The translations under genes were made by a program, and so were the position numbers. From Dactylorhiza incarnata (lineage: Eukaryota > Streptophyta > Magnoliopsida > Asparagales > Orchidaceae), in assembly GCA_033032865.1 (NCBI GenBank), contig JAWHQI010000064.1, forward strand, positions 5,952,001 through 6,016,000: 64,000 nt of DNA. Direction: 5' to 3'. Below the pieces are notes generated by a model. That model was not told the DNA's origin, ran no database searches, and was given only the letters and a program-made list of their open reading frames with translations. Numbering within the stretch: the stretch's first letter is position 1; each line of letters starts with the position of its first letter. Positions 6,415-61,844 of the stretch are shown piece after piece.

Positions 6415-6553
6415 TGTCACAACCCGTATTTTCCCGAAATATATTATAATATCAGAGTAAAGGGAAAAACGCGCGTCGTGATGCCACGTCCAGTAGGGGA
6501 CAACTACGGACGTTCAGGCGAGCAATCAAACGAACTTCTTCACAAAAAAAATG
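6415..6553. repeat. Left terminal inverted repeat of H
   Basis: 139 bp, matching the reverse complement of 17514-17652 with one visible mismatch (AAAAACGCGCGTCG here, AAAAACACGCGTCG in the partner). Homology stops abruptly after CACAAAAAAAATG in both copies. Confidence 0.85.
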
Positions 6554-7103: not shown

Positions 7104-7108
7104 GAACT
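7104..7108. repeat. Target site duplication of element B, left
   Basis: GAACT immediately before the 5' LTR, repeated exactly at 17296-17300 after the 3' LTR. Confidence 0.9.
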
Positions 7109-7475
7109 TGTTGGAGCATGCGTTTCGCACTCCTCCGGTTTGATAATAACAAAGTCCCATTTGTATTTGATTCTATTTTCATTAATGGTGTGCAGATAAC
7201 AGGTATGAGATGTTCACATTGCTGCTGAAGCTAAAATTGAATGTGGGAAAATTTCACTGTCGGAAAATTCCGACATCCACTGTCGCCCAGGCGACAGCAG
7301 AGAAGTTACAACTACTTCCCTCCACGGCAGATCGACGAAAGACAGTTTTGCGCCGTCGGAAATCCGACATCGATGTCGCCCAGGCGACAGCTCGGCGGTT
7401 ACAACAACTGCCCACGACTCCACCCACGACGGCACTCCAGCGGCAGTTTGGCGCTATCGGAAAATTCCGACAGTC

Positions 7476-7510
7476 ACTGTTGCCCAGGCGATAGTGAATT
7501 TCTATAAATT
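7476..7510 (+). promoter_or_regulatory. LTR core promoter of B: palindrome plus TATA box
   Basis: CTGTTGCCCAGGCGATAG (7476/7477-7494, slightly mutated) is followed after 8 bases by TATAAATT (7503-7510). The 3' LTR equivalent is CTGTCGCCCAGGCGACAG 16461-16478 and TATAAATT 16487-16494, also 8 bases apart. The same arrangement drives the antisense gene at 14696-14751. Confidence 0.7.
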
Positions 7511-7775
7511 GGTTCCTTTGGTTCGTGCATTAAAAAGCTTTTGAGAATTCCAGTCCCTTCTTGAGTGCATACGAACCAGAGAGCTCCAGAACATCCTCAA
7601 CTCCCATTTGTGCAAAGAAGGATTGAAGGATTGAAGATTGAAGACGAGATCGGGCGCGCTTCTACATCATCAATCATCTCGAGGCTTCAACAATCCGTTC
7701 AAAGATCTGATTTTCTAGGGAGTTGTTCTTTTCATATTGTATTTTCATTCACATAATTTTCATTTTGTATTGGTA

Positions 7776-7925
7776 GGGAAAATCGCTTCCTTGTGCGGAG
7801 CGTCTAAGTCCTTGCATGGCTTAGGGGAAAATCGCTTCCTTGTGCGGAGCGTCTAAGTCCTTGCGTGGCTTAGGGGAAAATTGTTTCCTTGTGCGGAGCG
7901 TCCAAGTCCTTGCGTGGCTTGGTGG
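7776..7925 (+). repeat. 49-bp tandem array in U5 of B, three units
   Basis: Units starting near 7776, 7824 and 7873 share GGGAAAATCGCTTCCTTGTG and GCGGAGCGTCTAAGTCCTTG. The 3' LTR has only two units (16760 and 16808), which explains its shorter length. Confidence 0.85.
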
Positions 7926-8359
7926 GAAATCGTGGCCTTGTGTGCTACGTCTAGATCGTGGGAAGATCTAGAGGATAGGATTGGGCTTGGTCTTGGGAGA
8001 GACAAGCGATAGCCTTCCGATCCATGGGAGAAGGATTGGTAAACCAAAATTGTAGAATTTTTAGTAAATATAATTGTGCCTTGATCTTAAGCATTGTTAA
8101 GATTATTTTTATTGTACTCAAATTTCATGATTAATATAATTATGTCTCTTTCTTTAATTATATATTTGATGGCATAATCTTTATCTTAGAAATTTGTGTT
8201 TTGGTTTAATACTAAAATTGCATTGGTTTGAAAGTGTTTAGAAGTAATTTTGTAGTAAAGTAAAATCTCTTTAAAAAAAAATTACTAAGTAAAAATTTAA
8301 TTTTTAAACACACCCTTATTCACCCCTCCCCCTCTAAGGGCGTTATACGATCCAACAAG

Positions 8360-8406: not shown

Positions 8407-11400
8407 ATGGCGCACAACGATCATGCGTTCGTTGAGGGGCAACGCATAAGTAGACCACCTTTATTCACGGGCACAGACTATAATTATTGGAAAACACGTA
8501 TGCGTTGTTTTCTAATTGCGCTAGATATAGAAGTCTGGAATATGGTAGAATCTAGTTACACTTCTCCAACAGTTGTTGTAGGAGATGTAACTATGGATAA
8601 GCCCAAAGACAAGTGGGATGACAATGATAAATTAAGATGTAAGAACAATGCAAAAGCCATGAATGCCTTATTTTGCGCACTAGATCGCACTGAATTTAAT
8701 AGAGTTTGTGCTTGTAATTCTGCATTTGAAATTTGGAATTTGTTAGAAATCACTCATGAAGGTACTTCGCAGGTAAAAGATTCAAAGCTATTTCAACTAG
8801 AGTCTGAATTTGAAAGGTTCAAAATGGAGGTAAATGAAGAGATCGATACGATGTACACACGATTTACAAAAATCGTGAACGACTCAAAGGTGCTAGGAAA
8901 GGTGTTCTCAAATGGAGATTTGGTAAGGAAAATCTTAAGATCACTTCCCCCGAAGTTCAATCCTAAAGTGACTGCAATTTCCGAGTCACATGATCTTAAG
9001 ACCTTACAATTGGAGAGTCTCATTGGGAACTTGAAAACTCATGAAGTTGAATTGAAAATTCAACAACAAGAGTATATGGAGTCAAGGAAGAAGAGATTGG
9101 CTCTAAGATCAAAGAAGGAAGAAACTAGTGATTCTGAGGAGGATGAAGAAGATGAGGAAAGTTTATTTGTTAAAAAATTTAGAAAATTTATGAAAAATCC
9201 GGAGAGAAGAAATTCGTTTAAGAAGTATTTTAAGAAGGAAACCTTTAGGAAGAAAAAAGGAAAGGAAGGCGATGAGGAGGAAGAGAGACCGCCACCGGAG
9301 TGCTATCACTACAAGAAGTTAGGACACATTCGAAGCAAGTGTCCAAAGTACTTGAAAGAACTTAAAGAAAAGAAGCACAAAGGGTCGAAGAAGGTGTTGA
9401 AGGCGGAAACCTGGGATGATACTACGTCTGAGGATGCAAGCAATTCCGACTCAAGTAAAGAAGAGGAGGCCAACATATGCTTTATGGGAAAGAGCGTCAT
9501 ATCTGATGACGAATGCAGTGTCCAAAGCGACACTGAGGTGTGTTGGCAGGCTAAGGACAAAGAAGACGTGTGGTACTTGGACTCGGGTTGTTCAAAGCAC
9601 ATGACGGGCAATAAAGAGAAGTTCCTTAGCCTGGAGATGAAGAAAGGAGGAGTTGTTACATTCGGTGACAATGGAAAAGGAAAAATCATCGGCATCGGTG
9701 TTGTGGGTAACGAAAATTTTTCAATTTCAAATGTTTTATTTGTAGAAGGATTAAAGCATAATTTGATTTCTATTAGTCAATTATGTGATAAGGGTTTAAA
9801 TGTTTTATTTGAATCTTCTACAAATTTGTGCAAAATTATTAATTCCAAAACAAATGAAATTGTTTTTACCGCACCTAGATGTCATAATGTATATATGATT
9901 AAATTTCTTGATTTTTCAAATTCAACTTTGAAATGTTTTCTATCAAAAAATGATGAATTAGATTTATGGCATAGGCGACTTGGACATGCTAGTGCCAAGT
10001 TAATTTCAAAACTTTCAAAAGATAAATTAATTAAAGGTTTACCTTTGCTAAATGGAAATTTATCTTCTCCACTATGTGTGCCTTGCCAAAAAGGGAAATT
10101 TTCAAAATCATCTTTCAAAAGTAAAAACATTATTTCTACCACTAGGCCACTTCAATTAATACATATGGACTTATTTGGGCCAATTGGAATTTCTAGCTTA
10201 GGAGGTAGAAAATACACATTTGTTTTGATTGATGATTATTCTCGTTTTTGTTGGACTTTATTTCTAACCTCCAAATCCGAAGCATTTTCAGAATTTTCAA
10301 AATTATGTTTGCGTATCCAAAATGAATTTGAGTTAAAAATTAAACGCATACGATCGGATCATGGAGGAGAATTTGAAAATGAAAAGTTTATTTCTTTTTG
10401 TACGGAGTTAGGAATTAAACATGAATTTTCCGCTCCACGCACACCACAGCAAAATGGTGTAGTGGAGAGGAAAAATAGAACTCTTCAAGAGTTAGCCCGT
10501 ACAATGTTATCTGAATTCAAATTACCAAAATCTTTTTGGGCTGAAGCGGTTAGTACGGCATGTTATGTAATTAATAGAGTAATGCTTCGCCCTATTTTAA
10601 AATTAACCCCTTATGAATTAATTTTTAATAAACGACCAAATGTCTCTTATTTCAAAGTTTTTGGTTGTAAATGTTTTATTTTGAATTCTAAAGATTCCTT
10701 AGGAAAATTTGATGAAAAATGTGATGAAGGTATTTTTATTGGCTATTCTTCAACTAGTAAAGCTTATAGAATTTTTAATAAAAGAACAAAAATAGTTGAA
10801 GAATCTATTCATGTTAGGTTTGATGAGTTTGCTTCATGTGTAGAAAAGAAAATTACAGGAAAAGAAGATGAACTCCTTCCCACGGTGGAGAATGATGAAG
10901 AAGAACTTGGAGAAAATGAAGAAGAAAAAGAAGAAGAAAGAGAAGAAGAAAGAGGAGAAGAAGATAAAGAAGAAGAAGAAAGAGAAGGATATGTGCCTCC
11001 AAGTGAATTGAAATTCTCAAAGGATCATCCAAAGGAGCTTATCATTGGAGATCCGCAAAAAGGGGTTAGTACTCGTTCTTCGCTACATGTTTTATTTTCA
11101 AACCTTTGTTTTGTTTCTGAAATAGAACCAAAAGATGTTTCCACCGCTTTAAATGATGAATTTTGGTTTTTAGCTATGAATGAAGAACTTAATCAATTTG
11201 AACGTAATAAGGTTTGGAATCTTGTAGAACGACCCAAAAATCGTCCTGTAGTTGGTGTTAAGTGGTTTTTTAAAAATAAAATGGATAATGAATCTAGAAT
11301 TGTTAGAAATAAAGCCAGATTAGTTGCAAAAGGTTATGCACAAATTGAAGGGGTAGATTTTGATGAAACTTTTGCACCCGTAGCAAGATTAGAAGCGGTT

Positions 11401-12654
11401 AGAATATTTCTTGCATTTGCTTGTTTTAAAAGATTTAAATTGTATCAAATGGATGTCAAAATCGCATTTTTAAACGGGTATATAAAAGAAGAGGTTTATG
11501 TAGAACAACCCTCTGGCTTTATAAATGAGAAATATCCAAATTATGTTTATAAATTAGATAAAGCGCTTTATGGATTAAAACAAGCGCCTCGTGCTTGGTA
11601 TGATTGATTAACTCAATATTTGCTAAAGCACGATTATAAAATAGGAAGTGCTGATTCTACACTCTTCATTAAGCAAATTGATCATGATTTAGTTATTTTA
11701 CAAATTTATGTTGATGATATTATTTTTGGAGCCACTAATGAAGAGTTGTGTAATGAAGTAGTTGAAATTATGAAAAATGAATTTGAAATGAGTATGGTTG
11801 GAGAACTTTCATATTTTTTAGGTTTTCAAATTACACAAAAACATGATGGTATTTTTATATGTCAAACCAAATATATTCATGATATGTTAAAAAGATTTGG
11901 ATTTGGAAACCTTAAGCATGCAAACACTCCTATGAGTACTTCACTAAAATTAGGAAAAGATGAAAGTGGTGTTTCAATTGAACAAACCCTTTATAGAAGT
12001 ATGATAGGGTCTTTATTGTATTTAACCGCATCTAGACCTGATATTATGTTTGCCGTTTGTTTATGTGCTAGATTTCAAGCTAATCCTAAAGAGTCACATT
12101 TAAAAGCGGTGAAACGTATCTTTAGATATCTCATAGGAACATCAAAATTAGGCTTATGGTATCCTCATAATGATTCTTTTATTTTGCATGGTTTTTTGGA
12201 TTCTGATTATGCGGGATGTTCTTTAGATAGAAAAAGCACTAGTGGCACTTGTCACTTTATCGGCCCTTCACTTATTTCATGGTCGAGTAGGAAACAGAAT
12301 TCTGTTGCCCTCTCTACTACCGAGGCCGAATATATTGCACTAGGTAGTTGTTGTGCCCAAGCTCTTTGGATGTCACAAACATTAGAAGATTTTGGCATGC
12401 AACAAAGTAGTGTAGAATTAAAGTGTGACAATAAAAGTGCTATAGACTTAACTAACAATCCCGTATTACATTCTAGATCTAAGCATATAGATGTCCGACA
12501 TCATTTTATAAGGGATCATATTAAGAAGGGTAATATAAAAATCAACTTTATAGGCACAGAAAATCAACTAGCGGATATATTCACTAAGCCGTTACCGGAT
12601 TCCCGTTTTTCTATGCTTAGGCTAGAATTAGGAATTCTAGACATTTCACAATGA
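8407..12654 (+). pseudogene. gag-pol polyprotein of element B, one in-frame stop
   Basis: Start chosen at ATG 8407 because the open frame upstream crosses the primer site. In order: Gag ([17 protein letters not shown] near the N-terminus), zinc knuckle near residue 299 ([14 protein letters not shown]), protease [13 protein letters not shown] near 390, integrase with LWHRRLGH and CVPCQKG, core HMDLFGP...RSDHGGEF...ERKNRT, RT with YVDDIIFG (about 11708), and RNase H ending DIFTKPLP. A single TGA at 11605-11607 interrupts RT after RAWYD. The frame continues unchanged, and related elements (element C) carry a sense codon there, so a CGA-to-TGA change is plausible. The knuckle's second Cys is Tyr (TAC 9310-9312). 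A Glu-rich linker precedes RT near 10890. Otherwise intact for 1,415 codons. Confidence 0.95.
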
Positions 12655-12949
12655 ATATGTCACTATTTAAAGCCTATAAAATTAAAAAAAAAATTATTAT
12701 CACAAAACATAAACAATGTACAAAGAAAAAGCCAAAATCTTAAAAATCAAAACATAAAATTTCAAAAGACTTAACAAAAATTCAACATCATTAATATTAC
12801 ATCAATATTGTTCAAATAAAAACAGTAGAAACAACTTAAGGATCAAGTTCATTAAACAAAAGCAGAAATCTAAAGAAGTTCACTGTCGCCCAGGCGACAG
12901 TGGATGTCGGAAATTTCCGACATCGCCCAGCTACAGCAGCAACATAAAA
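12655..12949. other. 3' flank of the antisense gene with a palindrome pair
   Basis: AT-rich spacer. It carries CTGTCGCCCAGGCGACAG (12883-12900) and TGTCGGAAATTTCCGACA (12905-12922), the same two palindromes as in B's LTRs, just downstream of the antisense stop codon. Confidence 0.8.
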
Positions 12950-14065
12950 CTACTCTGAATCTTCATAACCAGCCCCGCTGCTCTCTGGACAATCTTCTGG
13001 AGGTCCTCGTCTCACAGCTTTGGCACGGCGAGTCCGCCTCACCGATTGGCGTGGCGATTCTTCGTCCGGTACTTGCCATTTGGCTTCTTCCTCCGGAGTT
13101 GGCTTCAACTTCAGACCTTTGACGAGAAACTTCATAAACTTCTGCATTCGACTACGGTCCTTTTTCACTTCCTTCTTGTGATCCTCTAATGAATCACGCA
13201 AATCATCAATGGACTCTCGTAGTGATCCTGCCCTAGAAATGGTCGGCTCTCTAATCTCAATCCCCGGATGAGCTTTTCTCTGCGGCTTCTTCACCTTCAT
13301 TGAACCCGTATAATATATTTCCGGATAACAATCATCCAAATAAGCACCTTGCACTATCCATCCATACTTCTTATAGAGTACACGTTGTATTACCGCCCCC
13401 ATTGGCAGCGTATGAACCTTCACCCATCTTGGATGCTTTAATCTATACGCATACCTAATCTGGGAGAGTATGAAGTCCGCCACATCAAAAAGCTCATCCT
13501 CCATAATATAGTATGTAAAGAGGGTCAACTGAGCCGTAATACTTCTTGTGTCTCCACTCTTCAACATCACTGAATTCCTTAATATATCTTGGACTAAGAA
13601 AGCATCCAGAGTTAGTGACGTAACTTCAGTAGTAAGAGTCTTCTTTTGATTCCCATGTAAACTCATGTTTACAAGGGTCCAATCTCTATCCTTTCGATAA
13701 TTCTCCACTATATCAGGCATATTCTCACTCATCACTAGTCCGAATTCCTCTCGTAGATCAACATGTGTTATTTCCACATGTTGACCTTGGATCCTTGATC
13801 TCACTCCTCCATCCAATTCAGTGAAATTTGGGTCTTCCAAATGGTTATAAAATTCACGAATGAAAAAGGAAGAAAACCCCTCTGGTGTGATTATTGAAAT
13901 TATACCTGCGTTCGCAAGCCGATCATAGATATGATCGTGCTTTGGCAACTCAAATTCCACATACTTCGCTATTCCAACAATAGCCTTCTCCACCCCAGGA
14001 AAAACTTGATATGAACTACGTGCATCTTCCGAAGTACTCTTTCGAGCTTTGGAACTGGAAGCCAT
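12950..14065 (-). CDS. Antisense envelope-like / putative plant transposon protein of element B
   Basis: Intact 371-codon ORF opposite to gag-pol. ATG 14065 lies one base after a splice acceptor (TTATTTGCAG|A), and the coding part is a single exon. It shares a layout with the sense envelope-like ORF of element C (35948) and the one in E (59471): an AG-I/L motif (LANAGIISIITPEGF), an EFY helix (IREFYNHLEDPNF), a V-I-x-x-x-x-L stretch ending EEFGLVM, then a helical core around DILRNSVMLKSGDTRSITAQ and MEDELFDVADFILSQIRYAY. The C-terminus is basic and Glu-rich, with a probable coiled coil near residues 280-320 (SLRESIDDLRDSLEDHKKEV). No signal peptide or membrane segment is visible, so 'envelope' describes position and family only. 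Function unknown; homology is inferred by eye. Confidence 0.8.
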   Translation of the reverse strand: MASSSKARKSTSEDARSSYQVFPGVEKAIVGIAKYVEFELPKHDHIYDRLANAGIISIITPEGFSSFFIREFYNHLEDPNFTELDGGVRSRIQGQHVEITHVDLREEFGLVMSENMPDIVENYRKDRDWTLVNMSLHGNQKKTLTTEVTSLTLDAFLVQDILRNSVMLKSGDTRSITAQLTLFTYYIMEDELFDVADFILSQIRYAYRLKHPRWVKVHTLPMGAVIQRVLYKKYGWIVQGAYLDDCYPEIYYTGSMKVKKPQRKAHPGIEIREPTISRAGSLRESIDDLRDSLEDHKKEVKKDRSRMQKFMKFLVKGLKLKPTPEEEAKWQVPDEESPRQSVRRTRRAKAVRRGPPEDCPESSGAGYEDSE

Positions 14066-14066
14066 T

Positions 14067-14596
14067 CTGCAAATAACAAAAAAAATTTAGATCAAACATG
14101 TGTTGTGCACTGGAACACTGTCGCCCAGGCGACAGTGGGTGTCGGAATTTTTCGACAGCTCACCAAGTGATTTCTCTCAAATTTTTTTGCATATCCTTCC
14201 AGATCTACTCAAAATCAATGTTATTTCAACATCACGTTTTAAAAAAAAAAATTATGTTTTTCAAATCAACATATTCTACAAATTCTTTACTATTCATCAT
14301 CTTCAAACCTATACACTAAACTAGATCTACCAAAACCCTTTAGAGAATGAACAAATGGAACCCTTCATCACAAAAATCACAAAATCAAAATTTTCACAAA
14401 GATCCAACAAGATCCACTTTTTTTTAAACTAGATCTACTTTTTTTTTAAATAATAAAAAAAAAAACTAAACTTCAAAAACCTACACCATTCATCAAAAAT
14501 CAACATGAAAACTACATTTTCCTTCTTCTCTACTTTCAAAATCAAAAATCCAACAAAAAAAATTGGAGTCAAAACCATAAAAAGCAAACTCCCATA
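14067..14596 (-). other. Leader intron of the antisense gene
   Basis: Predicted donor TAAG|GTATGG at 14597/14596 and acceptor TTTTTTTGTTATTTGCAG ending at 14067, 530 bp, T-rich on the minus strand. It contains another palindrome pair (14118-14135 and 14140-14158). An intron directly before the start codon is common in plant genes. Confidence 0.65.
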
Positions 14597-14695
14597 CCTT
14601 AGATCTTGAGATGTCGCCGATTTCCGACAGCCCTCTCTCTCTCTCAACAGTCCAGAAAAATGAAGCACAATAGGGTTTGACTCGGTCTGATGCCC

Positions 14696-14751
14696 TATTT
14701 ATACTTTTGGCTGTCGCCCAGGCGACAGTAGGTGTCGGAATTTTCCGACAG
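14696..14751 (-). promoter_or_regulatory. Promoter of the antisense gene, LTR-like palindromes plus TATA box
   Basis: Read leftward: CTGTCGGAAAATTCCGACA (14751-14733), CTGTCGCCTGGGCGACAG (14728-14711), a 7-base gap, then TATAAATA (14703-14696). The order and spacing match B's sense LTR promoter (8-base gap). Transcription would begin near 14665 and give a short leader exon ending at 14597. Confidence 0.75.
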
Positions 14752-15869
14752 CTCCAAATGTACTAAAAAATCAATGTTGGGTCCCTTTGATGATCTACAA
14801 TAGTTATATGTCATTATTAATGCTTCACCTCATGACTTGATGACAAACCATGTGCTATTTATTTTAAAAAAAAAATTTGACTTACATGTTTATATGATTT
14901 CATTTCCAAGCTATCATCGTATTGACACTTCTACTTAGTTGTTTAGACCATTGGAAATTGTTTTCGCATGCCTCTAAGTATGAGAAATTGTTTATCTATC
15001 ATAATGAACTATCACGTTCACTTCTTTTGATCAATACATATGTGTACTTCTTTAATATATACATGGATCATATTTGCTTTAACATAATAAAATAGCACTT
15101 CTTAAATACAACTTTCACCCTTGATTTGTTAGCACAACAAAATATACACCATCTTTTGCGATTCAAGTGAATTCGGAGATCCTTGGTCATTTAAAAAAAA
15201 TATATCAATATATCAAAATTAAGATATCACAACATCTATGATCAAAAAAAATTAAAATAAAGACAAGGATACTCCACCAAGCACTACTTACCCTCCTGAT
15301 AAGTCTTAATGAGCATTGTGAGGTTAAGCACCTTGGACAGAATTGTAAAGTGTCTTGTGCAAAAGAAATATGGTTTTCTATTCATCTTGTGCTATATCTT
15401 CAAAGTCAAAGTTGCCTTTATGTGCTTTTATTATGTTCTACATTTCAATGATCATGTAAATTAAATAGCTTCATATGTTTGATCTAAGTATCACATGTAC
15501 ACATCATTATGTTAAATAAATATTCATCTCATGAGAATTGGACCGAAAATATTCCATAATTCTATACACTATTGTGTCTTTCTATGATACTTTCAAATGA
15601 TCTTACTCATGTTTAAGTTATTTTCTTTCATTACTTCATATGGCTATACCGTCACTTCATGAGTTTATTCATACTATGGCATATTCCTATTATTTCACCT
15701 AAAGTGCTTCCGCTTACTCTTTCTTTCTATATCCTATGTCCATTCCATCAAGAACTACTCTTTTATCTAATATTAACTTTTGCTAATATCAAAAGGGGGA
15801 GAATTAAAAGTATAAAAAGAACAATCACAAATCTATTACACCTAAAAATTCCACCTACACAATACATCA
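14752..15869. other. AT-rich spacer of element B
   Basis: No supported gene. A second polypurine-like AAAAGGGGGAGAA is present at 15791-15803. Confidence 0.6.
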
Positions 15870-15960
15870 TATATTTAGGGGGAGCATATATTTAGGGGGA
15901 GCATATATGTAGGGGGAGCTTTCATTTAGGGGGAGCTTTCATTTAGGGGGAGCTTTCATC
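15870..15960 (+). repeat. Tandem array of polypurine-tract-like units
   Basis: Five near copies of TTTAGGGGGAGC, spaced about 16-19 bases apart, upstream of the true polypurine tract of B. Confidence 0.85.
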
Positions 15961-16070
15961 TAAAGGTAGATCATTTATTTTCAAGAAATATATATCATGT
16001 TATTGTTTTGTGCACACACCAAAGGTTAAAATCAAATCTAAATAGACATGATTTCTTTTTATACGGATTT

Positions 16071-16134
16071 GTTATTATCAAAAGGGGGAGATTGTTGGAG
16101 CATGCGTTTCGCACTCCTCCGGTTTGATAATAAC
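16071..16134 (+). other. Polypurine tract of B with flanking inverted repeat
   Basis: PPT AAAAGGGGGAGAT ends at 16092, next to LTR start 16093. GTTATTATCAAA (16071-16082) is the exact reverse complement of TTTGATAATAAC in U3 (16123-16134), so RNA or single-stranded DNA can fold a stem around the PPT/LTR junction. Confidence 0.8.
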
Positions 16135-17295
16135 AAAGTCCCATTTGTATTTGATTCTAGTTTCATTAATGGTGTGCAGATAACAGGTATGAGATGTTCA
16201 CATTGCTGCTGGAGCTAAAATTGAATGTGGGAAAATTTCACTGTCGGAAAATTCCGACAGCCACTGTCGCCCAGGCGACAGCAGAGAAGTTACAACTACT
16301 TCCCTCCACGGCAGATCGACGAAAGGCAGTTTTGCGCTGTCGGAAATCCGACATCGATGTCGCCCAGGCGACAGCTCGGCGGTTACAACAACTGCCCATG
16401 ACTCCACCCACGACGGCACTCCAGCGGCAGTTTAGCGCTGTCGAAAAATTTCGACAGTCACTGTCGCCCAGGCGACAGTGAATTTCTATAAATTGGTTCC
16501 TTTGGTTCGTGCATTAAAAAGCTTTTGAGAATTCCAGTCCCTTCTTGAGTGCATACGAACCAGAGAGCTCCAGAACATCCTCAACTCCCATTTGTGCAAA
16601 GAAGGATTGAAGGATTGAAGATTGAAGATGAGATCGGGCGCGCTTCTACATCATCAATCATCTCGAGGCTTCAACAATCCATTCAAAGATCTGATTTTCT
16701 AGGGAGTTGTTCTTTTCATATTGTATTTTCATTCACATATTTTTCATTTTGTATTGGTAGGGAAAATCGCTTCCTTGTGCGGAGCGTCTAAGTCCTTGCG
16801 TGGCTTAGGGGAAAATCGCTTCCTTGTGCGGAGCGTCCAAGTCCTTGCGTGGCTTGGTGGGAAATCGTGGCCTTGTGTGCTACGTCTAGATCGTGGGAAG
16901 ATCTAGAGGATAGGCTTGGGCTTGGTCTTGGGAGAGACAAGTGATAGCCTTCGGATCCTTGGGAGAAGGATTGGTAAACCAAAATTGTAGAATTTTTAGT
17001 AAATATAATTGTGCCTTGATCTTAAGCATTGTTAAGATTATTTTTATTGTACTCAAATTTCATGATTAATATAATTATGTCTCTTTCTTTAATTATATAT
17101 TTGATGGCATAATCTTTATCTTAGAAATTTGTGTTTTGGTTTAATACTAAAATTGCATTGGTTTGAAAGTGTTTAGAAGTAATTTTTTAGTAAAGTAAAA
17201 TCTCTTTAAAAAAAAATTACTAAGTAAAAATTTAATTTTTAAACACACCCTTATTCACCCCCCCCCCCCCTCTAAGGGCGTTATACAATCCAACA
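16093..17295 (+). mobile_element. 3' LTR of element B
   Basis: TGTTGGAGC...ATCCAACA, 1203 bp, followed by TSD GAACT. Its final palindromes and TATA box (16487-16494) are less mutated than those of the 5' LTR. A C-homopolymer near 17258-17270 is longer than in the 5' copy. Confidence 0.95.
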
Positions 17296-17513
17296 GAACT
17301 CTGGCGGCAGCTACAAACCTGAACCTGATACAAACTGTCTGTTAAGATTGAACTCAAACCTCTAGGAAGGGAAGACATACAAATACTTGCTTTTGCTACT
17401 GCTTTTTCTCTGGGAAAATTTAATACATAATATCACGCTATACTCAGGATGGTGTGCCATCCTTTAGCTCTCGTGCACCTCTCCCGTATGAATATAAACT
17501 TAAAATCTTACTT

Positions 17514-17652
17514 CATTTTTTTTGTGAAGAAGTTCGTTTGATTGCTCGCCTGAACGTCCGTAGTTGTCCCCTACTGGACGTGGCATCACGACGCGTGTTT
17601 TTCCCTTTACTCTGATATTATAATATATTTCGGGAAAATACGGGTTGTGACA
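17514..17652. repeat. Right terminal inverted repeat of H
   Basis: Inverted partner of 6415-6553, ending GGTTGTGACA at 17652 next to TSD GTCCG. Confidence 0.85.
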
Positions 17653-28464: not shown

Positions 28465-30080
28465 TGTTGGGTATTGTGTCCACAATCACCTTGATTTGAA
28501 GATGTCCCCTAGTAAACTAAAATGAATTGTATGTGTATTTGATGACTTTTGTTTAGATGTGTTATGACAGGTAGTAATGCTAAGTGCACACCAAAGTCAG
28601 GTTGCAATGGATCACCAAACACAGTTCTAGACAATGTAATCCTTCATTGTATAGAACAATGTGTTGGTCCATGTGTAATCTCTCTTTTGGAGTACACTTC
28701 ATATTCTCATAACTGAAGGTGTTCAAGGTTGAGGTGTGGAGCAGGCTTTCAGAAGAAAAGAAAATTTCTGCTGAGTCTATTCGTCGAGATAACTCGGGTC
28801 CTTCCGACGAATCCCGACGAATCCTGACAGAAGACTTTTTGGCTGAGTTATGCAAAATTTTCTGAAGCCAAGTCCATTCGTCGAGATGACTCGGATCATT
28901 CCGACGAATCCCGACGAATGCTGACAGAGGTCATTTTGGCTGAGTCATGCAGAATTTTCTGAAGTCAAGTCCATTCGTCGAGATGACTCGGATCATTCCG
29001 ACGAATCCCGACGAATGCTGACAGAGGTCATTTTGGCTGGGTTGTGAAGAAGTTTCTGAAGCCAAGTCCATTCGTCGAGATGACTCGGATCATTCCGACG
29101 AATCCCGACGAATGCTGACAGAGGTCAATCCTGTCTAGGTTCTGAAGAAAACTCTCAGCTAAGTCAATTCGTCGGATGCTCTCGTGTTCTCCCGACGAAT
29201 CCCGACGAATGACGGACAGACAGATTTCAATTTCTCGTTTCGTTTTTGAAATTTAGGGTTAGCCGACATGAACAGTACACGTGTCGCATCTCCCTTCATT
29301 GTCGCAAGAGCCGTTGAAGTCCTCCCTATATATAGATCATTATTTTAGGGCAAAACAATGATCTCAAGAATCGATCTAAGACTTTCTTCAGCCGCCAGTT
29401 CAGAAAAGAAAAAGCAAAAAAAAAAAAAAAAATCTATCTTCTCTTTCTCTTTTGCTGAACAAGTATTCTGAGATTGAACTCTCTCTGCTCAAGAATCTTT
29501 CTCTATTTGTGATTAGAGAGTTCTCAGAAGAAGGCTTTTGATCTCTTTGCTGCTCTCCTTATTGAAGATTTTCTCAAGCAAGTCAAAGGGCCTATTCAGA
29601 TCTGGTTAGCCTAGACTTCTCTCTTCCACTTCTCTCTAGTGCCAAGCTTTCCTTCAAGGTTGAGAAGAAGACTCAGTTTTCAAGATCTGAAGTTAATCTC
29701 TTTAGAGGTTAAGAAGAAGTATTTTGTTTCCATTTCTCTTCTTTTGTAGGAGTTTTTCACTCCGAGATTATTTGTAGGAGAGGTTTCACTCCGAGTTGTA
29801 GGAGTTGTTATACTCCGAGTTGTAGGAGTTTTGACTCCGAGGTGTAAGATTTGTTATAATCTGAGATTGGTGAAGTAGCCGAGTCTAGCCTCGTAGTGCT
29901 AGATAGGCGAGGCGGGAAAGAGGACTACCCACATCGGGGAACCTCTATAAAATCCTTGTGTCTGTGCTGTGGTTGTTTGTTTGCTTTTCTGTGTTTATTT
30001 TTTTTTAATTCCGCTTAAAGACATAGAATCCACCTATTCACCCCCCTCTAGGTGATTTAGGCCGCAACTAGATACTTTCA
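28465..30080 (+). mobile_element. 5' LTR of Sirevirus C
   Basis: TGTTGGGTATTG...GATACTTTCA. U3 has 97-bp tandem units (28772-29215), each with inverted ATTCGTCG...CGACGAAT motifs. TATATATA is at 29327-29334. R/U5 has GTAGGAGTT...ACTCCGAG repeats near 29750-29840. Confidence 0.95.
28772..29215 (+). repeat. 97-bp tandem repeats in U3 of C
   Basis: GTCCATTCGTCGAGATGACT recurs at 28872, 28969 and 29066, with diverged units at both ends. The same array is at 38932-39375 in the 3' LTR. Confidence 0.9.
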
Positions 30081-30082
30081 AT

Positions 30083-30093
30083 TGGTATCAGAG
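30083..30093 (+). other. Primer binding site of C (initiator tRNA-Met)
   Basis: TGGTATCAGAG, two bases after the 5' LTR. Confidence 0.9.
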
Positions 30094-30158
30094 GTAGGTT
30101 GTTCGCTATAAGGCTAACACCTTGAACAAGATCTCCTCATCTAGTTGCTAAAGCAATC

Positions 30159-32459
30159 ATGTCTGGCATGGATAAGACCAAGGATTCCGTCAAGCTTCCA
30201 GTCTGCACAAAAGAGAATTTTCCTATGTGGAAGGAGAGAGTCAGATTCTTCATGGAGGCTGCTGATCCAAGAATATTTCAGATTGTAGAAGAAGGTCCTC
30301 ATGTTCCTATGAAACCATCTTCCATAAACTCTACAATTATGGTCGCCAAGAAGATGCTGGAACTCACAAAGGATGAGATTGCACTGGTCTCTCTGGACAA
30401 GAAAGCAAAAAATATCATAGCAGGTGCAGTTGATGATTCAATGTTGCAAAATCTGCTTCACTGCAAATCTGCTAAAGAGATGTGGGACTCACTAGTCGTT
30501 CTGATGGAAGGGACCGAAGAAGTAAGGGATGACCGAAGATCGTTGCTGAACCAAGAATATGAAGCATTCAAGCAAGATCCAAGAGACTCCATTTCTGACA
30601 CCTACGAGAAGTTCTTCAAGATCGTAAATGGTCTTAGAAACTATGATAGAGAATTCACGACTGGTGAACTAAATGACAAATTTCTGAGATCCCTGACGAA
30701 AGAATGGGATACAAAGGTCATAGCCATCAGAGAATTTGGAAAGCTCGGAACCACGGAGCCCCAAATGTTGTTTGGTAAGCTCCTGTCTCATGAGTTGAAG
30801 CTGAATTCCCGCAAAGCTGAAGAAGAGGGGGTCAGAGCCTCTGGAAGGGAGAAGTCCTCTGCCCTAAAAGCTGAAAGCTCAAGAAAGTGCAAAGCTCTCC
30901 CACCTGTAAGGAGACCATCTTCTGATGAGGATGAGTCTGATGCCAGCCCATCAGGTTCAGAGATGTCTGATGGAGAATTTTCTCTTCTCTCCAAACAATT
31001 CAAAAGACTTCTGAATAAAAGAAAGCAGAAGAGAGGGCAATCCACTACATTTGATCACAGAAGATCAAAACGTGATGGTGATCATCACAAAAAGGACTAC
31101 AACAATGAAAGGTATAAATCTAAACCGAACAAAATTGTTTCTGCTGACATTATTTGTTATTGCTGCAATAAGCCAGGGCATGTAATAGCCGAGTGCCCGT
31201 ATAAAAAGAAAGAAGGATCAAGGAAGGAAGAAAAGAGATCATTTAAAGGAAGGAAGAAAGAAAAGAGTCTCCTCGCCAAAAAGGCCAAGACTCTGAGCGA
31301 CAGCGACTCTGATGCGTCAAGCTCAGATGAAGAAGCCTACTTTGGGCTTATGGCTCATCTAGATGAAGAAGTAGGCGACTCCTCTTATAAGGGGAAGGTA
31401 AACTCTCATACCCCTCTATCTGCTTCTGAAGATGAGACTGCATCCGTAGCAAATGAAGGCTACTCCTCGGAGGAGGACTCTAAGTTAATAACTCAGTATG
31501 AAGCCCTTGTGAAAGGATTTGACAAGTGCCGCAAGGTTGTCAAATCCAAGTCAAAAGAAATTGAATCTCTCAAGACAGTGGAATTAGCCTTGAGGGAGGA
31601 AGTTGAACAATTAACTCCCCTCAAAGATGAAATCCAACTCTTGAAAGACGAACTGAAAAGCTCCACTGAGTTGTTAAAATTAAAGGAGAAAACCATAAGT
31701 GAACTAGAAAATAAGCTGAAGGCGGAAAGGAAGCTCGTAGAAAGCTTCTCCAAGCCTAAGACTATTCTTCCATTCATTGATACGTTTTCTGCTCCTGCGA
31801 AGGGTAGTGGAATTGGTCATAAGGCTGAAAGTAGTAAGGCTGCTGAGAAGAGAGCTGTGAAGGGAAAGGGAACTGCTAATCAAAGTCAACCTTCATTTAG
31901 GAAGGTCATTTTTCCATCAAATCCGTTTGACTTTGATTCATCCTACGGTCATTTTGCTAGGCCAACACATGTTGAACCTAGTAATAGATATCAAGGATGG
32001 AGCTTTCCCCGAAACTTTGACAACTCTCCCTTCAAAGCTCCTCATGAAGAAATAACCCTCAAAGATCATGGCCCATTTGTTCACGGATCAGCTCACAAGA
32101 AAGCACCGAAAATTAGAACGATTGCACCCAAACCTGTTGAGAAGAAGTTGGAGCCATGTGTGTGCTGTCACCATGAGGCTCCCACTTCTAAGAAGACTTC
32201 CTCTATGAAAGTCACTCCTGTTGCACCTCCCGTTCAAAAGGCAAAACAGGAGACAAAGAGAAGGTACAATCGATTCGATTGTTGGTGTTGTGGCAAGATT
32301 GGTCACTTTGCCATAGACTGTTGGTTTAATCCGAGAAATGTCTCGACTCCACGGATTAACAATGCAAGAATGACCTCTCGCAATGTTAACATTCCAAGTG
32401 GTGGTCATCTAACAAAAAGCCAAGGACCCAAATCGGTTTGGGTTCCTAAGGGCAATTGA
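30159..32459 (+). CDS. gag: Gag polyprotein of Sirevirus C
   Basis: 766 codons, uninterrupted; first ATG after the primer site. The N-terminal Copia Gag domain shows LPVCTKENFPMWKERVRFF, then SAKEMWDSLVVLMEG. Two zinc knuckles are present: CYCCNKPGHVIAEC from residue 333 and CWCCGKIGHFAIDC from residue 708. Between them lie Ser/Asp-rich acidic stretches and a coiled coil (about 435-530, EEVEQLTPLKDEIQLLKDEL). Gag packages the RNA in cytoplasmic virus-like particles. Two knuckles and this length are large for Copia but fit Sireviruses. It ends VWVPKGN at TGA 32457-32459; pol opens seven bases later in another frame. Confidence 0.95.
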   Translation: MSGMDKTKDSVKLPVCTKENFPMWKERVRFFMEAADPRIFQIVEEGPHVPMKPSSINSTIMVAKKMLELTKDEIALVSLDKKAKNIIAGAVDDSMLQNLLHCKSAKEMWDSLVVLMEGTEEVRDDRRSLLNQEYEAFKQDPRDSISDTYEKFFKIVNGLRNYDREFTTGELNDKFLRSLTKEWDTKVIAIREFGKLGTTEPQMLFGKLLSHELKLNSRKAEEEGVRASGREKSSALKAESSRKCKALPPVRRPSSDEDESDASPSGSEMSDGEFSLLSKQFKRLLNKRKQKRGQSTTFDHRRSKRDGDHHKKDYNNERYKSKPNKIVSADIICYCCNKPGHVIAECPYKKKEGSRKEEKRSFKGRKKEKSLLAKKAKTLSDSDSDASSSDEEAYFGLMAHLDEEVGDSSYKGKVNSHTPLSASEDETASVANEGYSSEEDSKLITQYEALVKGFDKCRKVVKSKSKEIESLKTVELALREEVEQLTPLKDEIQLLKDELKSSTELLKLKEKTISELENKLKAERKLVESFSKPKTILPFIDTFSAPAKGSGIGHKAESSKAAEKRAVKGKGTANQSQPSFRKVIFPSNPFDFDSSYGHFARPTHVEPSNRYQGWSFPRNFDNSPFKAPHEEITLKDHGPFVHGSAHKKAPKIRTIAPKPVEKKLEPCVCCHHEAPTSKKTSSMKVTPVAPPVQKAKQETKRRYNRFDCWCCGKIGHFAIDCWFNPRNVSTPRINNARMTSRNVNIPSGGHLTKSQGPKSVWVPKGN

Positions 32460-32466
32460 TTATTGA

Positions 32467-35400
32467 TTGCAGGTATGTCCAAAGGCCAATTCAAATCCAA
32501 TATGGTACTTGGACAGTGGATGTTCACGGCACATGACCGGAACGAGAAGTTTGTTACAAGAGTATACCCCCGTGAAAGATGGTCCAAAAGTTATTTTCGG
32601 CGGATCTGATCGGGGAATCACAAAAGGCTACGGTATGATCACTAATGGTACAGTCTCTTTCACAGACGTGGCTTATGTTAAAGGATTACAACATAATCTC
32701 ATTAGCATAAGTCAACTTTGTGACAAAGGCTACATGGTAGAATTCTACAAGGACAAGTGCCTGATAAAGCTGTCTGATAAATCTGAAACTATTTTAACAG
32801 GCACTCGGAGTAGAAATATTTTTTGTTTAAATTTTCTATGTTTAGATACTTCTACACCAGTGTGCTTTTTGGCAAAAGATAGTGCATCTCTTTGTGACCA
32901 ATGGCATAAGAGACTAGCACATATAAATTTCAAAACTATAAGCTTGTTATTTTCTCACAACTTAGTTCGTGATGCTCCTGATGTTAAGTGCATTAAAGAG
33001 AGACCCTGTCACGCATGCCAAATGGGCAAGCAGACGAGGGCTAGCTTTAAGAGCATTATTGGCAAAGACTCTACCAGATGTTTATATCTACTTCATATGG
33101 ACTTGTTTGGTCCCATGCAAATCCGAAGTTTAGGAGGCAAGTCTTATACGCTGGTTATTGTTGATGATTACTCACGCTTTGCTTGGGTTTTCTTTCTGAA
33201 ACACAAGTCAGACACCTTTGACTCGTTCACCACATTCGTCAAGCAAATTCAGAATGAACTGGAATGTTCTGTGGTCAAAATCATAAGTGACCATGGTACA
33301 GAATTCAAGTCTGGGGCTATGACCGAATTTTGTGAAAGCCTAGGTATCTTTCATGAGTTTTCCTCTCCTCGTACTCCACAACAAAATGGAGTAGCTGAGA
33401 GAAAGAATAGGACACTCATAGAGGCTTGCAGAACAATGTTGAGTGACTCTTCTCTCCCAGAATACTTCTGGGCTGAAGGCATCAACACTGCCTGCCACGT
33501 GCAAAACAGAGCACTAATCAACAAGAACCATCATAAGACTCCTTATGAACTCCTGAAGGGCAAGAAGCCAACCTTGTCTTATTTTAGAATCTTTGGCAGT
33601 AAATGCTTCGTGCTTAATAACGGGAAATATTACAAAACTAAGTTTAGTGAAAAATGTTTTGAAGGTATTTTCGTAGGATATAGTAGCCATAGTAAGGCAT
33701 ATAGGATTTTCAACAAGAAAACCCTGGTTGTAGAAGAAACTTTTAATGTTATATTTGATGAAACTAGTATGCTTCAAAGCAGTTCTTCTAGTGTTTTTGT
33801 TGAAGATGCAGATGCAAGGTTCAAGGACATAAACTTGGAAGAAGCTGTAAAGGAAGATGCTCCAAAGTCTATTGAAGTCAACATTCCATCCGCACATGAG
33901 GAAGATGAACCTCAAGAAGATGAAGATGTACCGGAAGTGCAGGAACCCCGTGGAAATCCAAATGCTGGAATGATCCGACACTTAAGGGACCATCCTGCAG
34001 AGCAAATTATTGGAGATACCCATGTTGGTGTAAGAACAAGAAGAGGTACAACTAACGAAGTTTTACATTTAAGTTTTCTTTCACAGATTGAGCCAAAGAA
34101 GTTTGAAGAAGCAAACTCCGATCCCTCTTGGATCCTTGCTATGCAAGAGGAGCTCAACCAATTCAAAAGATGTAAAGTTTGGAAGTTGGTACCTAGACCC
34201 AAAGGGCATAATGTGATTGGAACCAAATGGATCTTCCGAAACAAGCTTGATGAAAAGGGCATCATTACCAAGAACAAAGCAAGACTGGTGGCTCAAGGAT
34301 ACAGGCAAGAAGAAGGGATTGACTTTGATCAGACCTTCGCACCCGTAGCAAGACTTGAAGCCATCAGATTATTTCTGGCTTATGCTGCATATAAGGGTTT
34401 TAAGGTTTTTCAGATGGACGTAAAGTCCGCATTTCTGAATGGAGACCTTAAAGAGGAAGTGTATGTAGCTCAGCCTCCAGGTTTTGTCGATCCTAACTTT
34501 CCTGATCATGTATTCTATTTACATAAAGCCTTGTATGGTCTCAAACAGGCACCCCGAGCCTGGTATGAGACATTGTCTAAGTTTCTTCTTGAGAACAAAT
34601 TTACAAGAGGAACAATAGACAAGACATTGTTTCTTAGGGAAGTTAAAGGCGAGATTTTGCTGGTGCAAATCTATGTCGACGACATTATCTTTGGCTCTAC
34701 TGATGACAAACTTTGCAAAAAGTTCTCTAACTTGATGCAAGGTAAGTTTGAAATGAGCAGTATGGGAGAGCTGAAATATTTCTTAGGACTCCAGGTGAAC
34801 CAATCTGAAGATGGAATCTTCATCTCTCAGACGAAGTTCACTAAAGAGCTTCTTAAGAAATTTGGAATGGAGAGTGCAACCTCAATGAGGACTCCAATGG
34901 GCTCAAGTATGTCTCTGGACAAGGATGAGAAAGGGAAACCTTTTGATGAAACCAAGTACAGAAGCATAATTGGATCCTTGCTCTATCTCACTGCTACTAG
35001 ACCTGATATAATGTTCTCAACATGTGTGTGTGCCAGGTATCAAGTGAACTGCAAGGAATCTCATTATGCCGCTGCAAAGAGGATATTGAGATACCTTAAG
35101 GGTACACCAAATCTCGGCTTATGGTACCCAAGAAGCAATGATTTTGAACTAATTGGATTTTCAGACGCTGATTTTGCAGGTAGCAAAGATGATAGAAAGA
35201 GCACTTCGGGAACTTGCCAGTTCTTGGGAAAAAGGCTCGTTTCCTGGAGTAGCAAGAAGCAAAATTGCGTTGCAATCTCAACTGCTGAATCGGAGTATAT
35301 CTCTGCAGGCAGTTGCTGCGCACAACTTTTGTGGATGAAAAATCAGCTTGAGGACTATAATGTAAAGCTCTCAGAAATCCCCATGTTCTGTGACTCCTCA

Positions 35401-35619
35401 AGTGCTATTGCCATAGCAAATAATCCCGTCTCTCACAGCAGAACGAAGCATATTGAGCTTCGCTATCACTTCATCCGAGAACATGTCGAAAGTAAGGACA
35501 TAAATTTGTTATATGTTAATACTGACAAACAAATTGCAGATATTTTTACGAAGCCTCTGGACGAAACCAAATTCAATTTCTTCAAAATGGAACTTGGAAT
35601 GCTCAATAAGGAATCTTGA
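32467..35619 (+). CDS. pol: Pol polyprotein of Sirevirus C
   Basis: Open for 1,050 codons after a TGA at 32464-32466. The first in-frame ATG is well inside the protease region, so the 5' boundary is that of the open frame. Domains in order: aspartic protease [13 protein letters not shown] at about 14-26; integrase zinc domain QWHKRLAH...CHACQMG; core [30 protein letters not shown]; integrase C-terminal [12 protein letters not shown]; reverse transcriptase [11 protein letters not shown] and YVDDIIFGS; RNase H with [20 protein letters not shown] and [11 protein letters not shown], ending [12 protein letters not shown]. All catalytic motifs are intact. How it is translated is unclear, because its frame does not overlap gag. 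Confidence 0.95.
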
Positions 35620-35947
35620 AGTCGGGACTGTTGAAATTTCACGAAATTGCACGAGACTTCACGTATTAACTCAGAAAATTTCATGACATTTCACGGGTGT
35701 TCACGGGACAGTTTTTTTTTTGGATATTTATTCCTCTCAAAATTCCTCTTCCGTGGAATAAATTCTCTACAGGTGCGCGCTCTACTTAAAATTTTATATA
35801 TATATATATATATATAAATTAAAAGAAAACATCACGATTTCACGGAAGGATTCGTCTTCTCAAATTCCTCTTCCGTGAAACCCTCCCGACCGTTCGTCTT
35901 CTCCGTCGCGATTCCCCTGTTTCTCTTCCTCGACGTCGACGACATCA
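35620..35947 (+). promoter_or_regulatory. pol-env spacer of C with TATA-like tract
   Basis: Holds (TA)n ending TATATAAATT at about 35797-35820, 130 bases before the env-like ATG, and repeated TTCACG / CTCTTCCGTG motifs. It might be a separate promoter for the env-like ORF; the TA run alone is weak evidence. Confidence 0.35.
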
Positions 35948-38437: not shown

Positions 38438-38601
38438 GCTGGGCTTTTCTGGAATCATGATGTTTTCTTTGCTTATATATATATATACACTTTTCTTAAA
38501 CATTTAGTCCTATCTGCTCTTCATTATATATATTACAGCCTGGGTTCTGCCTTCTTATTTAATATTCTTTCTGTGCAATTCAAGTTAGTGCCTAGGGTTA
38601 T

Positions 38602-38666
38602 GACATCTTCAAATAGGGGGAGATTGTTGGGTATTGTGTCCACAATCACCTTGATTTGAAGATGTC
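38602..38666 (+). other. Polypurine tract of C with flanking inverted repeat
   Basis: GACATCTTCAAAT (38602-38614) lies directly before PPT AGGGGGAGAT and pairs perfectly with ATTTGAAGATGTC in U3 (38654-38666, U3 bases 30-42). Confidence 0.85.
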
Positions 38667-40241: not shown

Positions 40242-40781
40242 ATACAGAAAGTAAATGCAGGACTAGTACGAGACTGGAGAGCATAATAAATAAAAGGGTT
40301 AGTAGTCCAATCACTCCATAACAGGAGGCTTCAATATCGAATCCGTTCTTAGGAGGAAGTTCCGTTCAATCCTCGTTCATAAAGGTCTTTTCTCCGTTCA
40401 TAGGAGCATACTTATATTTGGTGAGATACACATAATTATCTTGACGTTATTGAATTTGTAGTGTCGCCTCGCGACTGCGACCCAAATTGCGCATCAATAC
40501 TTTTAACTTAGTCGATTCCTTGGATCGATACACATAATTTTACTACGTGACTAAAATATGCGTCGCGAGTCCGCAAATTTATCCCAATTAATTTCGCTCA
40601 ATTTCGGGCGTTTATTTTGCTCGTAAAAGACTTTTAAAGGACCAAAAGAGAAGATTACACCTTCAAACTTTTATAGTAATTGCAAAATGCCCTAAATTAG
40701 AGCCTATAATTTTGGGGAAATTTTCCCAACTCATTTGGGCTTTTAATTCTTTTAAATAAACCTTGTATATGGGTTTAAAAA
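40242..40781 (-). mobile_element. F 3' LTR, middle piece
   Basis: Lies between C and A. It continues the 49-bp array and then shows AT-rich DNA. No gene seen. Confidence 0.55.
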
Positions 40782-57469: not shown

Positions 57470-57493
57470 ATCTCCCCCTATTTGTCTTAACCC
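57443..57493 (-). other. Polypurine tract of E with flanking inverted repeat
   Basis: Minus strand GGGTTAAGA (57493-57485), a short gap, PPT AGGGGGAGAT, LTR start, then TCTTAACCC in U3 (57451-57443). The arms pair perfectly over 9 bases. Confidence 0.7.
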
Positions 57494-57684
57494 TATTTAG
57501 AGGGAAATTGTACTAGCATATAATTAACCCAGCACAGCATTTGTAAAGATAAGAAATATGTCACTCAATCAAAAGTGAAATTTTTAGAAGAAGAGATAAA
57601 CAAATTTTTCAGAATCATATAAACAGATTTTCATGTTCATACCAATTAGTATTCAACTATAGGGTAAAATATTGTTTTCAAATA

Positions 57685-61835: not shown

Positions 61836-61844
61836 TTAAGTTTT

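What the first reader, a model, noticed from the sequence alone, without database searches (positions are those of the whole stretch)
12950..14751. Antisense, separately promoted envelope-like gene inside a Sirevirus-type element
In element B the envelope-like gene is inverted relative to gag-pol. It has a complete transcription unit on the minus strand: paired palindromes, TATAAATA at 14703-14696, a leader exon ending TAAG|GTATGG, a 530-bp intron and an ATG one base after the acceptor. The ORF is intact over 371 codons although B's pol has a stop, so selection or recency may differ. Sense (C, E) and antisense (B) homologues sit in one window. Antisense accessory ORFs are known in some plant LTR elements (for example Grande of maize); an inverted envelope-like gene with LTR-style promoter parts is new to me.
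Basis: partly seen in the sequence, partly recalled or inferred. Interest (0 to 1): 0.88.

Follow-up and report, generated by a model that had tools for sequence, protein, structure and literature searches.

The report
Retrotransposon's backward second gene, selection-kept
A plant retrotransposon family carries an extra gene written backwards to its other genes; in the genome copies examined its protein sequence is kept by natural selection, and it is predicted to be switched on by an inverted, LTR-like promoter of its own and to be spliced, so it likely makes a helper protein rather than a virus-type envelope.

Summary
Element B is a 10.2-kb SIRE-type Ty1/copia element with a 371-codon ORF antisense to gag-pol. 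In 40 of 40 other genome copies fetched the ORF is again antisense and without indels. dN/dS is 0.136 (41 copies ranked by protein; pol yardstick 0.147) and 0.204 in 7 sequences sampled by non-coding DNA (of 9 taken, 1 was frameshifted and 2 truncated). TATAAATA (38/41), donor AAG|GTATGG (40/41) and the AG acceptor (41/41) are conserved and TATA-to-donor length is near constant, while leader and intron diverge. The promoter's palindromes are the LTR's own, inverted with the gene. Genome-wide, 940 intron/ORF boundaries and no spliced junction were found, as expected if copies arise from sense RNA. Not supported: "envelope" (no membrane segment; similarity to C only through sub-threshold PF20167 matches) and "inversion" of a former sense gene (no sense copy seen). 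No transcript evidence was available. Antisense accessory ORFs are known in Ty3/gypsy elements (Grande, Retand); ten searches found none reported for a Sirevirus. An antisense gene needs a promoter other than the 5' LTR's, so the old proposal of an internal Sirevirus promoter becomes testable. New variant of a known kind.

The parts
7109..8357 (+). 5' LTR of element B (TSD GAACT at 7104-7108)
8407..12654 (+). gag-pol frame, one in-frame stop at 11605-11607 private to B; gag lacks the expanded part seen in a 92% identical relative
12881..12926 (-). RM palindrome pair P4 downstream of the antisense ORF; 73 bp 78% like LTR RM3+TATA but TATA degenerate; exact 12-base stem of the G-palindrome present in 36 of 40 copies
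12950..14065 (-). antisense ORF, 371 aa, weak PF20167 match at residues 61-213; under purifying selection
14067..14597 (-). predicted 5'-UTR intron, 531 bp, GTATGG...TTTGCAG, 13 ATGs inside
14118..14161 (-). RM palindrome pair P3 (inside the intron)
14598..14695 (-). predicted leader (transcription start not mapped), free of ATG; half palindrome P2 at 14613-14628
14696..14703 (-). TATAAATA of the antisense promoter
14711..14754 (-). RM palindrome pair P1 upstream of TATA, same order as in the LTR but inverted with the gene
15794..16090 (+). seven AGGGGGAG polypurine octamers (15794, 15877, 15894, 15911, 15928, 15945, terminal 16083), terminal one followed by AT/TG
16068..16137 (+). inverted repeat flanking the terminal PPT (TTTGTTATTATCAAA / TTTGATAATAACAAA)
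16093..17295 (+). 3' LTR (TSD GAACT at 17296-17300), with three RM pairs and TATA

Best explanation
Element B belongs to a SIRE-type Ty1/copia family in which a 371-codon gene antisense to gag-pol is kept under purifying selection and is likely transcribed leftward from its own inverted LTR-like promoter, with a predicted leader intron removed, to make a likely nuclear accessory protein. SHOWN: antisense placement in the fetched copies; coding-frame selection about as strong as on pol; conservation and near-fixed spacing of palindrome, TATA and splice donor while leader and intron drift; the same palindromes in the LTR and around the antisense gene; 940 intron/ORF boundaries in the genome and no spliced junction found. 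INFERRED: transcription, splicing, and the protein's role. Mechanism I commit to: two promoters built from the same palindromes would answer to the same factor, so that the sense genomic RNA and the antisense accessory mRNA are switched on together; the intron survives replication because only the sense RNA is reverse transcribed, where the antisense splice sites are not readable; splicing would remove the 13 upstream ATGs; and the protein acts in trans (regulation or anti-silencing) rather than as an envelope.
For: Antisense to pol in 40 of 40 copies fetched's list and antisense to the linker in 9 of 9 linker-sampled ones (two of these truncated). All 41 sequences (with B) 1116 nt without indel, ATG and TAG in 41 of 41, 31 of 41 without internal stop; 92 of 110 scored copies, B included, open (my count of the table). 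dN/dS 0.136 in the antisense frame against 1.28-1.65 in four other frames and 0.28 in the wobble-matched opposite frame; pol 3' piece 0.147 in 31 sequences. Linker-sampled: 0.204 (6 copies and B); changes shared by 2 or more sequences 24 silent, 7 replacement, 0 stop, against 241 silent and 872 replacement sites. Lowest ratios at residues 61-213, the PF20167 part (0.097), and 281-330, the predicted helix (0.055). Footprint: TATA 0.959, donor 0.983 identity to B against leader 0.786, RM-TATA gap 0.775, intron body 0.835. TATA-to-donor 96 nt in 35 of 38 copies that have both, ATG-free in 34 of 38 (1.74 expected when shuffled), introns 420-550 bp with 7-19 ATGs. In 40 loci the exact 12-base stem of the G-palindrome occurs 112 times around the gene (P1, P3, P4: 120 possible) and 121 times in the LTR parts; its two free central bases are CA in 111 and 119 of these. 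940 intron/ORF boundaries, 0 spliced junctions. No membrane segment, basic tail (pI 9.35; RRTR, RRAK).
Against: No RNA data of any kind. The large copy set was ranked by protein score, which lowers dN; the DNA-sampled set is small, and in its 11-sequence form (0.223) the wobble-matched opposite frame is not far off (0.347; other frames 0.74-1.43). Of 9 DNA-sampled copies 2 have the ORF truncated, 1 a 1-nt indel and 2 an internal stop. Codon usage trained on gag-pol does not single out the frame. No homologue of the protein among 1450 word-sharing candidates of a 5.8-billion-protein set, even at E<=10, though pol gave 1002. The acceptor stretch (0.825) is no better conserved than the intron body, although AG itself is invariant. 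Splicing is not shown; no processed copy was found. Nuclear location and regulation rest on composition and on analogy (Grande gene23, sunflower Athila) only.
Confidence: 0.72

Rival explanations
1. The gene is a true envelope-like gene of a Sirevirus that was inverted relative to gag-pol.
For: It sits where Sirevirus env-like genes sit, between pol and the 3' LTR; C's sense ORF there also matches PF20167; Citrus gene models join gag-pol with a same-strand PF20167; in env-containing Sireviruses RM boxes lie upstream of ENV (Bousios 2010).
Against: No membrane segment, B and C do not align, a profile from five Citrus segments finds neither B nor C, no sense copy seen in this family.
Confidence: 0.15
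2. The antisense transcription itself (non-coding or dsRNA) is what matters, and the ORF is incidental.
For: Promoter and donor signals are conserved; the predicted transcript would run toward the pol 3' end, 295 nt from the ORF's end; a dsRNA role is raised for other antisense ORFs in Vicient & Casacuberta 2020.
Against: Frame-specific selection, absence of indels in 41 copies and mostly ATG-free leader.
Confidence: 0.08
3. Nested insertion or captured host gene confined to one or a few copies.
For: Antisense genes could enter by nested insertion; P1 and P4 flank the gene as same-direction repeats.
Against: Same arrangement in all fetched copies, 940 boundaries genome-wide, no minus-strand AGGGGGAG in 12655-16092.
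Confidence: 0.03
4. Real selected antisense gene, but with a structural or packaging role and no link to the shared palindromes.
For: Residues 281-330, predicted helical (282-317, pLDDT 52-73 in an otherwise poor model), are the most constrained part (0.055).
Against: None direct; the palindromes could be shared only because the promoter was copied from the LTR.
Confidence: 0.3

Closest known systems
Sirevirus (SIRE lineage, Ty1/copia) env-like / eORF-3'F elements (Bousios 2010 PMC2829016, parts 1-4 of 7 read; Neumann 2019 PMC6317226, passages)
   Same: Non-coding hallmarks: AGGGGGAG series, AT/TG site, PPT inverted repeat, CGG-CCG palindromes in LTR and upstream of the 3' gene, TATA, PBS junction, C-rich signal.
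   Different: The 3' gene is antisense; B's own gag is short compared with its kin.
Antisense aORF-3R of Ty3/gypsy: Grande gene23, RIRE2, Retand, pvRetro13 (Vicient & Casacuberta 2020 PMC7264820, parts 1-2 of 3 read; Gao 2014 PMC4093653 and Vicient 2025 PMC11963269, passages; that Grande and RIRE2 are gypsy is recalled)
   Same: Antisense ORF between pol and 3' LTR, kept in most copies; own upstream promoter in Grande; suspected nuclear role.
   Different: Those are gypsy; Retand's domain is TRP28 (PF04195), here weak PF20167; no LTR-type palindromes or spliced leader described in what I saw.
Sunflower Athila aORF with PF20167 and nuclear signal (PMC11728184, passages)
   Same: Same Pfam family, predicted nuclear.
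   Different: Sense orientation, Ty3/gypsy Athila.
C element of this window
   Same: Sense 829-aa ORF after pol with sub-threshold PF20167.
   Different: No alignment to B; no LTR-linker match in the window's self-comparison and none seen by eye.

Membership tests
Sirevirus / SIRE lineage | AGGGGGAG 10 bp before the 3' LTR, then AT/TG | tested here: met
   16083-16092 then TG at 16093
Sirevirus / SIRE lineage | several PPT octamers clustered near the 3' LTR | tested here: met
   seven, 15794-16083
Sirevirus / SIRE lineage | inverted repeat bordering the terminal PPT | tested here: met
   16068-16082 and 16123-16137, right arm 30 bp inside the LTR
Sirevirus / SIRE lineage | palindromic CGG-CCG repeats in LTR and upstream of ENV, TATA shortly after | tested here: met
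   three pairs per LTR, P1-P3 upstream of the antisense gene in its own direction, TATA after RM3 and after P1
Sirevirus / SIRE lineage | repeats define CpG islands | not tested
   no island calculation was made
Sirevirus / SIRE lineage | CA/A(T or G)TGG TATCAGAGC junction and C-rich signal at LTR end | tested here: met
   CA/AGTGG TATCAGAGC after 8357; CACCCCTCCCCCTCT before the LTR end
Sirevirus / SIRE lineage | expanded gag (about 660 aa) | tested here: inconclusive
   not met in B itself (protease motif at residue 392); a 92% identical relative P0083 has at least 265 more residues, so B lacks what its kin have
Sirevirus / SIRE lineage | placement in an RT tree with named Sireviruses | tested here: inconclusive
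   no named reference in the set; B pairs with a Platanthera protein 100/100, bootstrap not settled; B pol is 49-54% identical to C, 33-40% to D
[quoted passage not shown]
antisense aORF-3R class | transcribed from its own promoter (reported for Grande) | not testable with these tools
   sequence signals only
Retand TRP28 antisense ORFs | PF04195 domain in a Ty3/gypsy element | tested here: not met
   Pfam scan gives PF20167 (and one chance-level match), not PF04195; pol is copia-type
retroviral-type envelope | membrane-spanning segment | tested here: not met
   best 19-residue hydropathy 1.16
PF20167 Transposase_32 | score over Pfam's cut-off | tested here: not met
   28.4 bits against 45, E 1.8e-6

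The most novel reading that the evidence does not exclude
A copia retrotransposon has built itself a second, antisense transcription unit from an inverted copy of its own LTR control module: the same palindromes drive both strands, and the antisense, intron-bearing gene makes a DNA-binding protein that recognises them and so controls its own and the element's transcription or silencing, a two-promoter switch of a kind I found described for no plant retrotransposon.
Probability: 0.15. Interest if true: 0.9.

Novelty: new variant of a known kind. Interest (0 to 1): 0.72.

Why it matters
Bousios 2010 says that an internal promoter for the Sirevirus env-like gene had been proposed and that they could not conclusively identify one. 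An antisense gene needs a promoter other than the 5' LTR one, and here the candidate is a short, footprinted module built from the LTR's own palindromes, so the question can be tested with a small reporter. It also adds a copia lineage to the antisense accessory genes that I saw reported only for Ty3/gypsy elements in plants, with selection about as strong as on pol, and offers a predicted intron kept in a retroelement because it lies on the strand that is not copied from RNA.

Tried and rejected
Homologues of the antisense protein: none at E<=1e-3 or E<=10 among 1450 candidates, none in viral contigs or genome contigs; B's pol in viral contigs none; palindrome cassette in viral contigs none; PDB and NCBIfam none for the protein, Rfam none for the linker. 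A first pattern for the A-palindrome was one base short and matched nothing; one search is the right one. Single-sequence AlphaFold2 model: pLDDT 38, unusable, so no fold search was made. A profile from five Citrus PF20167 segments finds neither B nor C; with C added it finds an E fragment at 1.5e-6 and B only at 0.022. Codon usage did not separate the frame. Processed (intron-less) copies, which would have been evidence of splicing, were not found with up to 2 mismatches (24-mer) or 1 (21-mer). PF20167 genome search: 150 scored of 8771 candidates, 143-163 bits, far above B's 28; no loci, so orientation was not examined. Literature: ten searches listed no antisense 3' gene in a Sirevirus; Neumann 2019 has a class eORF-3'R, but supplements could not be read, so such SIRE elements may be tabulated there. 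The Grande gene23 paper itself was not seen. Further papers seen as passages only: PMC3414828, PMC3599292, PMC6911290, PMC6696364.

Full report
Observation. The ORF is nearly twice the longest seen in 500 dinucleotide shuffles of the region (189 codons); the other five frames of the same DNA hold 16-30 stops.

The element. B has LTRs 7109-8357 and 16093-17295, TSD GAACT, K2P 0.0195 over 1200 aligned sites, about 0.75 My at the recalled rate 1.3e-8. Pfam shows a copia-type gag-pol. Seven non-coding Sirevirus hallmarks listed by Bousios 2010 (PMC2829016; parts 1-4 of 7 read) are met: AGGGGGAG with AT/TG, several octamers, the PPT inverted repeat, palindromes with CGG-CCG in LTR and linker, TATA after them, the PBS junction and the C-rich signal. 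CpG islands were not calculated. Expanded gag is not met in B, but a 92% identical relative has it. B's pol pairs with a Platanthera (orchid) protein at 100/100 among 40 rows, C with another at 94/89; the bootstrap had not settled. The host is therefore perhaps an orchid, an inference only.

Family-wide, antisense, selected. The window lies in a 3.27-Gb genome. With the ORF's protein as query 110 copies were scored of 9068 candidates; 92 of 110, B included, have no internal stop by my count. I fetched 40. In 40 of 40 the ORF lies antisense to the pol 3' end and to the linker; 39 of 40 also show the 3' LTR in pol's direction, L018 has no LTR match. All 41 ORFs (with B) are 1116 nt, start with ATG and end with TAG; 31 have no internal stop. 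Nei-Gojobori dN/dS is 0.136 (820 pairs), against 1.28-1.65 in four other frames, 0.28 in the opposite frame whose wobble sites coincide, and 0.147 for the pol 3' piece in 31 sequences (B and 30 full-length gapless copies; 7 more had indels and were dropped, and 3 had shorter matches).

Ascertainment. Ranking by protein score favours low dN. Two checks: (i) 28 of 40 copies have dS over 0.06 to B, where neutrality would predict tens of replacement changes per copy, yet the largest dN is 0.020; (ii) copies sampled by a non-coding linker piece (40 scored of 1897), 9 taken at every fourth rank: 6 full-length gapless, 1 with a 1-nt indel, 2 truncated. One of the 6 (L053) is also's list. The 6 with B give dN/dS 0.204; changes shared by two or more sequences are 24 silent, 7 replacement, 0 stop. 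With four already held copies that are also's list the ratio is 0.223, other frames 0.74-1.43 and 0.347 in the wobble-matched one; shared changes 25, 15, 0. Four of the 6 have no internal stop. Private changes are looser (21 silent, 37 replacement, 2 stop), as decay after insertion would give. The stop in B's pol is private: 0 of 39 comparable copies.

Promoter and intron footprint. Across 40 copies identity to B is 0.959 in the TATA box, 0.983 at the donor, 0.898/0.927/0.918 in P1/P2/P3, but 0.786 in the leader, 0.775 between palindrome and TATA and 0.835 in the intron body; the acceptor stretch is 0.825 although its AG is invariant; the linker upstream is 0.92. TATAAATA is present in 38, the donor in 40 and AG in 41 of 41. 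In the 38 with both, TATA-to-donor is 96 nt in 35, 98 in 2, 95 in 1; 34 of the 38 leaders have no ATG (1.74 expected on shuffling), while introns of 420-550 bp hold 7-19 ATGs. Mean intron distance is 0.145 against 0.026 in the ORF. This pattern is what a spliced leader would leave. It is not proof: there is no RNA evidence, and searches for processed copies found none, while 940 intron/ORF boundaries are present with up to 1 mismatch. The latter fits replication from the sense RNA, in which antisense splice sites are not read.

Palindromes. In 40 loci the stem GTCGCC..GGCGAC occurs 121 times in the fetched LTR parts and 112 times around the antisense gene (76 upstream, 36 downstream; P1, P3 and P4 would give 120); the two free central bases are CA in 119 and 111 of these. 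Boxes with changed stems are not counted. Order and spacer are inverted with the gene (LTR spacer ATCCACT, P4 spacer its reverse complement), so P1 points toward its own TATA as the LTR's third pair does. The two central bases are not inverted, which I cannot explain. P4 keeps 73 bp 78% like the LTR's third pair plus TATA, which suggests that the module was copied from the LTR. In env-containing Sireviruses 77 of 79 linker boxes lie upstream of ENV, and no internal promoter was conclusively identified.

The protein. PF20167 is matched at 28.4 bits (cut-off 45; E 1.8e-6) at residues 61-213; C's sense ORF matches at 29.3 bits. B and C do not align. Six Citrus gene models that I scanned join gag-pol and a same-strand PF20167. 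No membrane segment; C-terminal pI 9.35 with RRTR/RRAK. A PF20167 protein of sunflower Athila is predicted nuclear (PMC11728184, passages) and Grande's antisense protein is reported as nuclear (PMC7264820). Hence 'accessory, likely nuclear' rather than 'envelope'; untested.

Known and new. [quoted passage not shown] a forward 3' ORF in 74% of elements is given as the feature of the SIRE clade. Ten searches listed no antisense one in a Sirevirus. I rate it a new variant of a known kind: copia host, LTR-derived inverted promoter module, predicted leader intron, different domain.

Noticed in passing
6415-6553 and 17514-17652: 139-bp inverted repeats, 99% complementary, flank B from outside (left end CACAACCCGTATTTTCCCG); without B they would bound about 1.05 kb, so B seems inserted in a DNA-transposon-like element.
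   Followed up: partly
8407-11604: B's gag lacks at least 265 residues that follow residue 378 in a 92% identical protein of another assembly (P0083).
   Followed up: partly
12885, 14120, 14713 versus the LTR boxes: Cassette order and spacer are inverted relative to the LTR, but the two central bases of the 14-mer are not; three linker copies share this, so they likely descend from one founder. Unexplained.
   Followed up: partly
14066-14760 in L009-L048: Leader and intron fall into subfamilies 75-98% like B while the ORF stays 95-99%; recombination or fast 5' turnover.
   Followed up: partly
28465-40243: Element C: LTRs 99.9% identical (very recent), gag and pol in separate frames, sense 829-aa 3' ORF; its linker has repeated TTCACGGAA-like words and a TATATATAAATT run, a possible internal promoter of another kind.
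   Followed up: no
57685-59995 (-): E: a broken C-like 3' ORF with a zinc-knuckle trace just upstream and no pol found in 54501-64000; same-strand order fits sense, but pol is missing.
   Followed up: partly
Citrus proteins P0005, P0012, P0016, P0024, P0028, P0037: Annotated host 'genes' that join gag-pol and PF20167 on one strand, i.e. likely sense-oriented relatives.
   Followed up: partly
G000, whole genome: PF20167 is abundant (150 scored of 8771 candidates, all 150 over the cut-off), presumably in other element families.
   Followed up: no
G000:C777:7230504 and 7240369: Two B-family linkers on one strand 9.87 kb apart, a possible tandem pair sharing an LTR.
   Followed up: no
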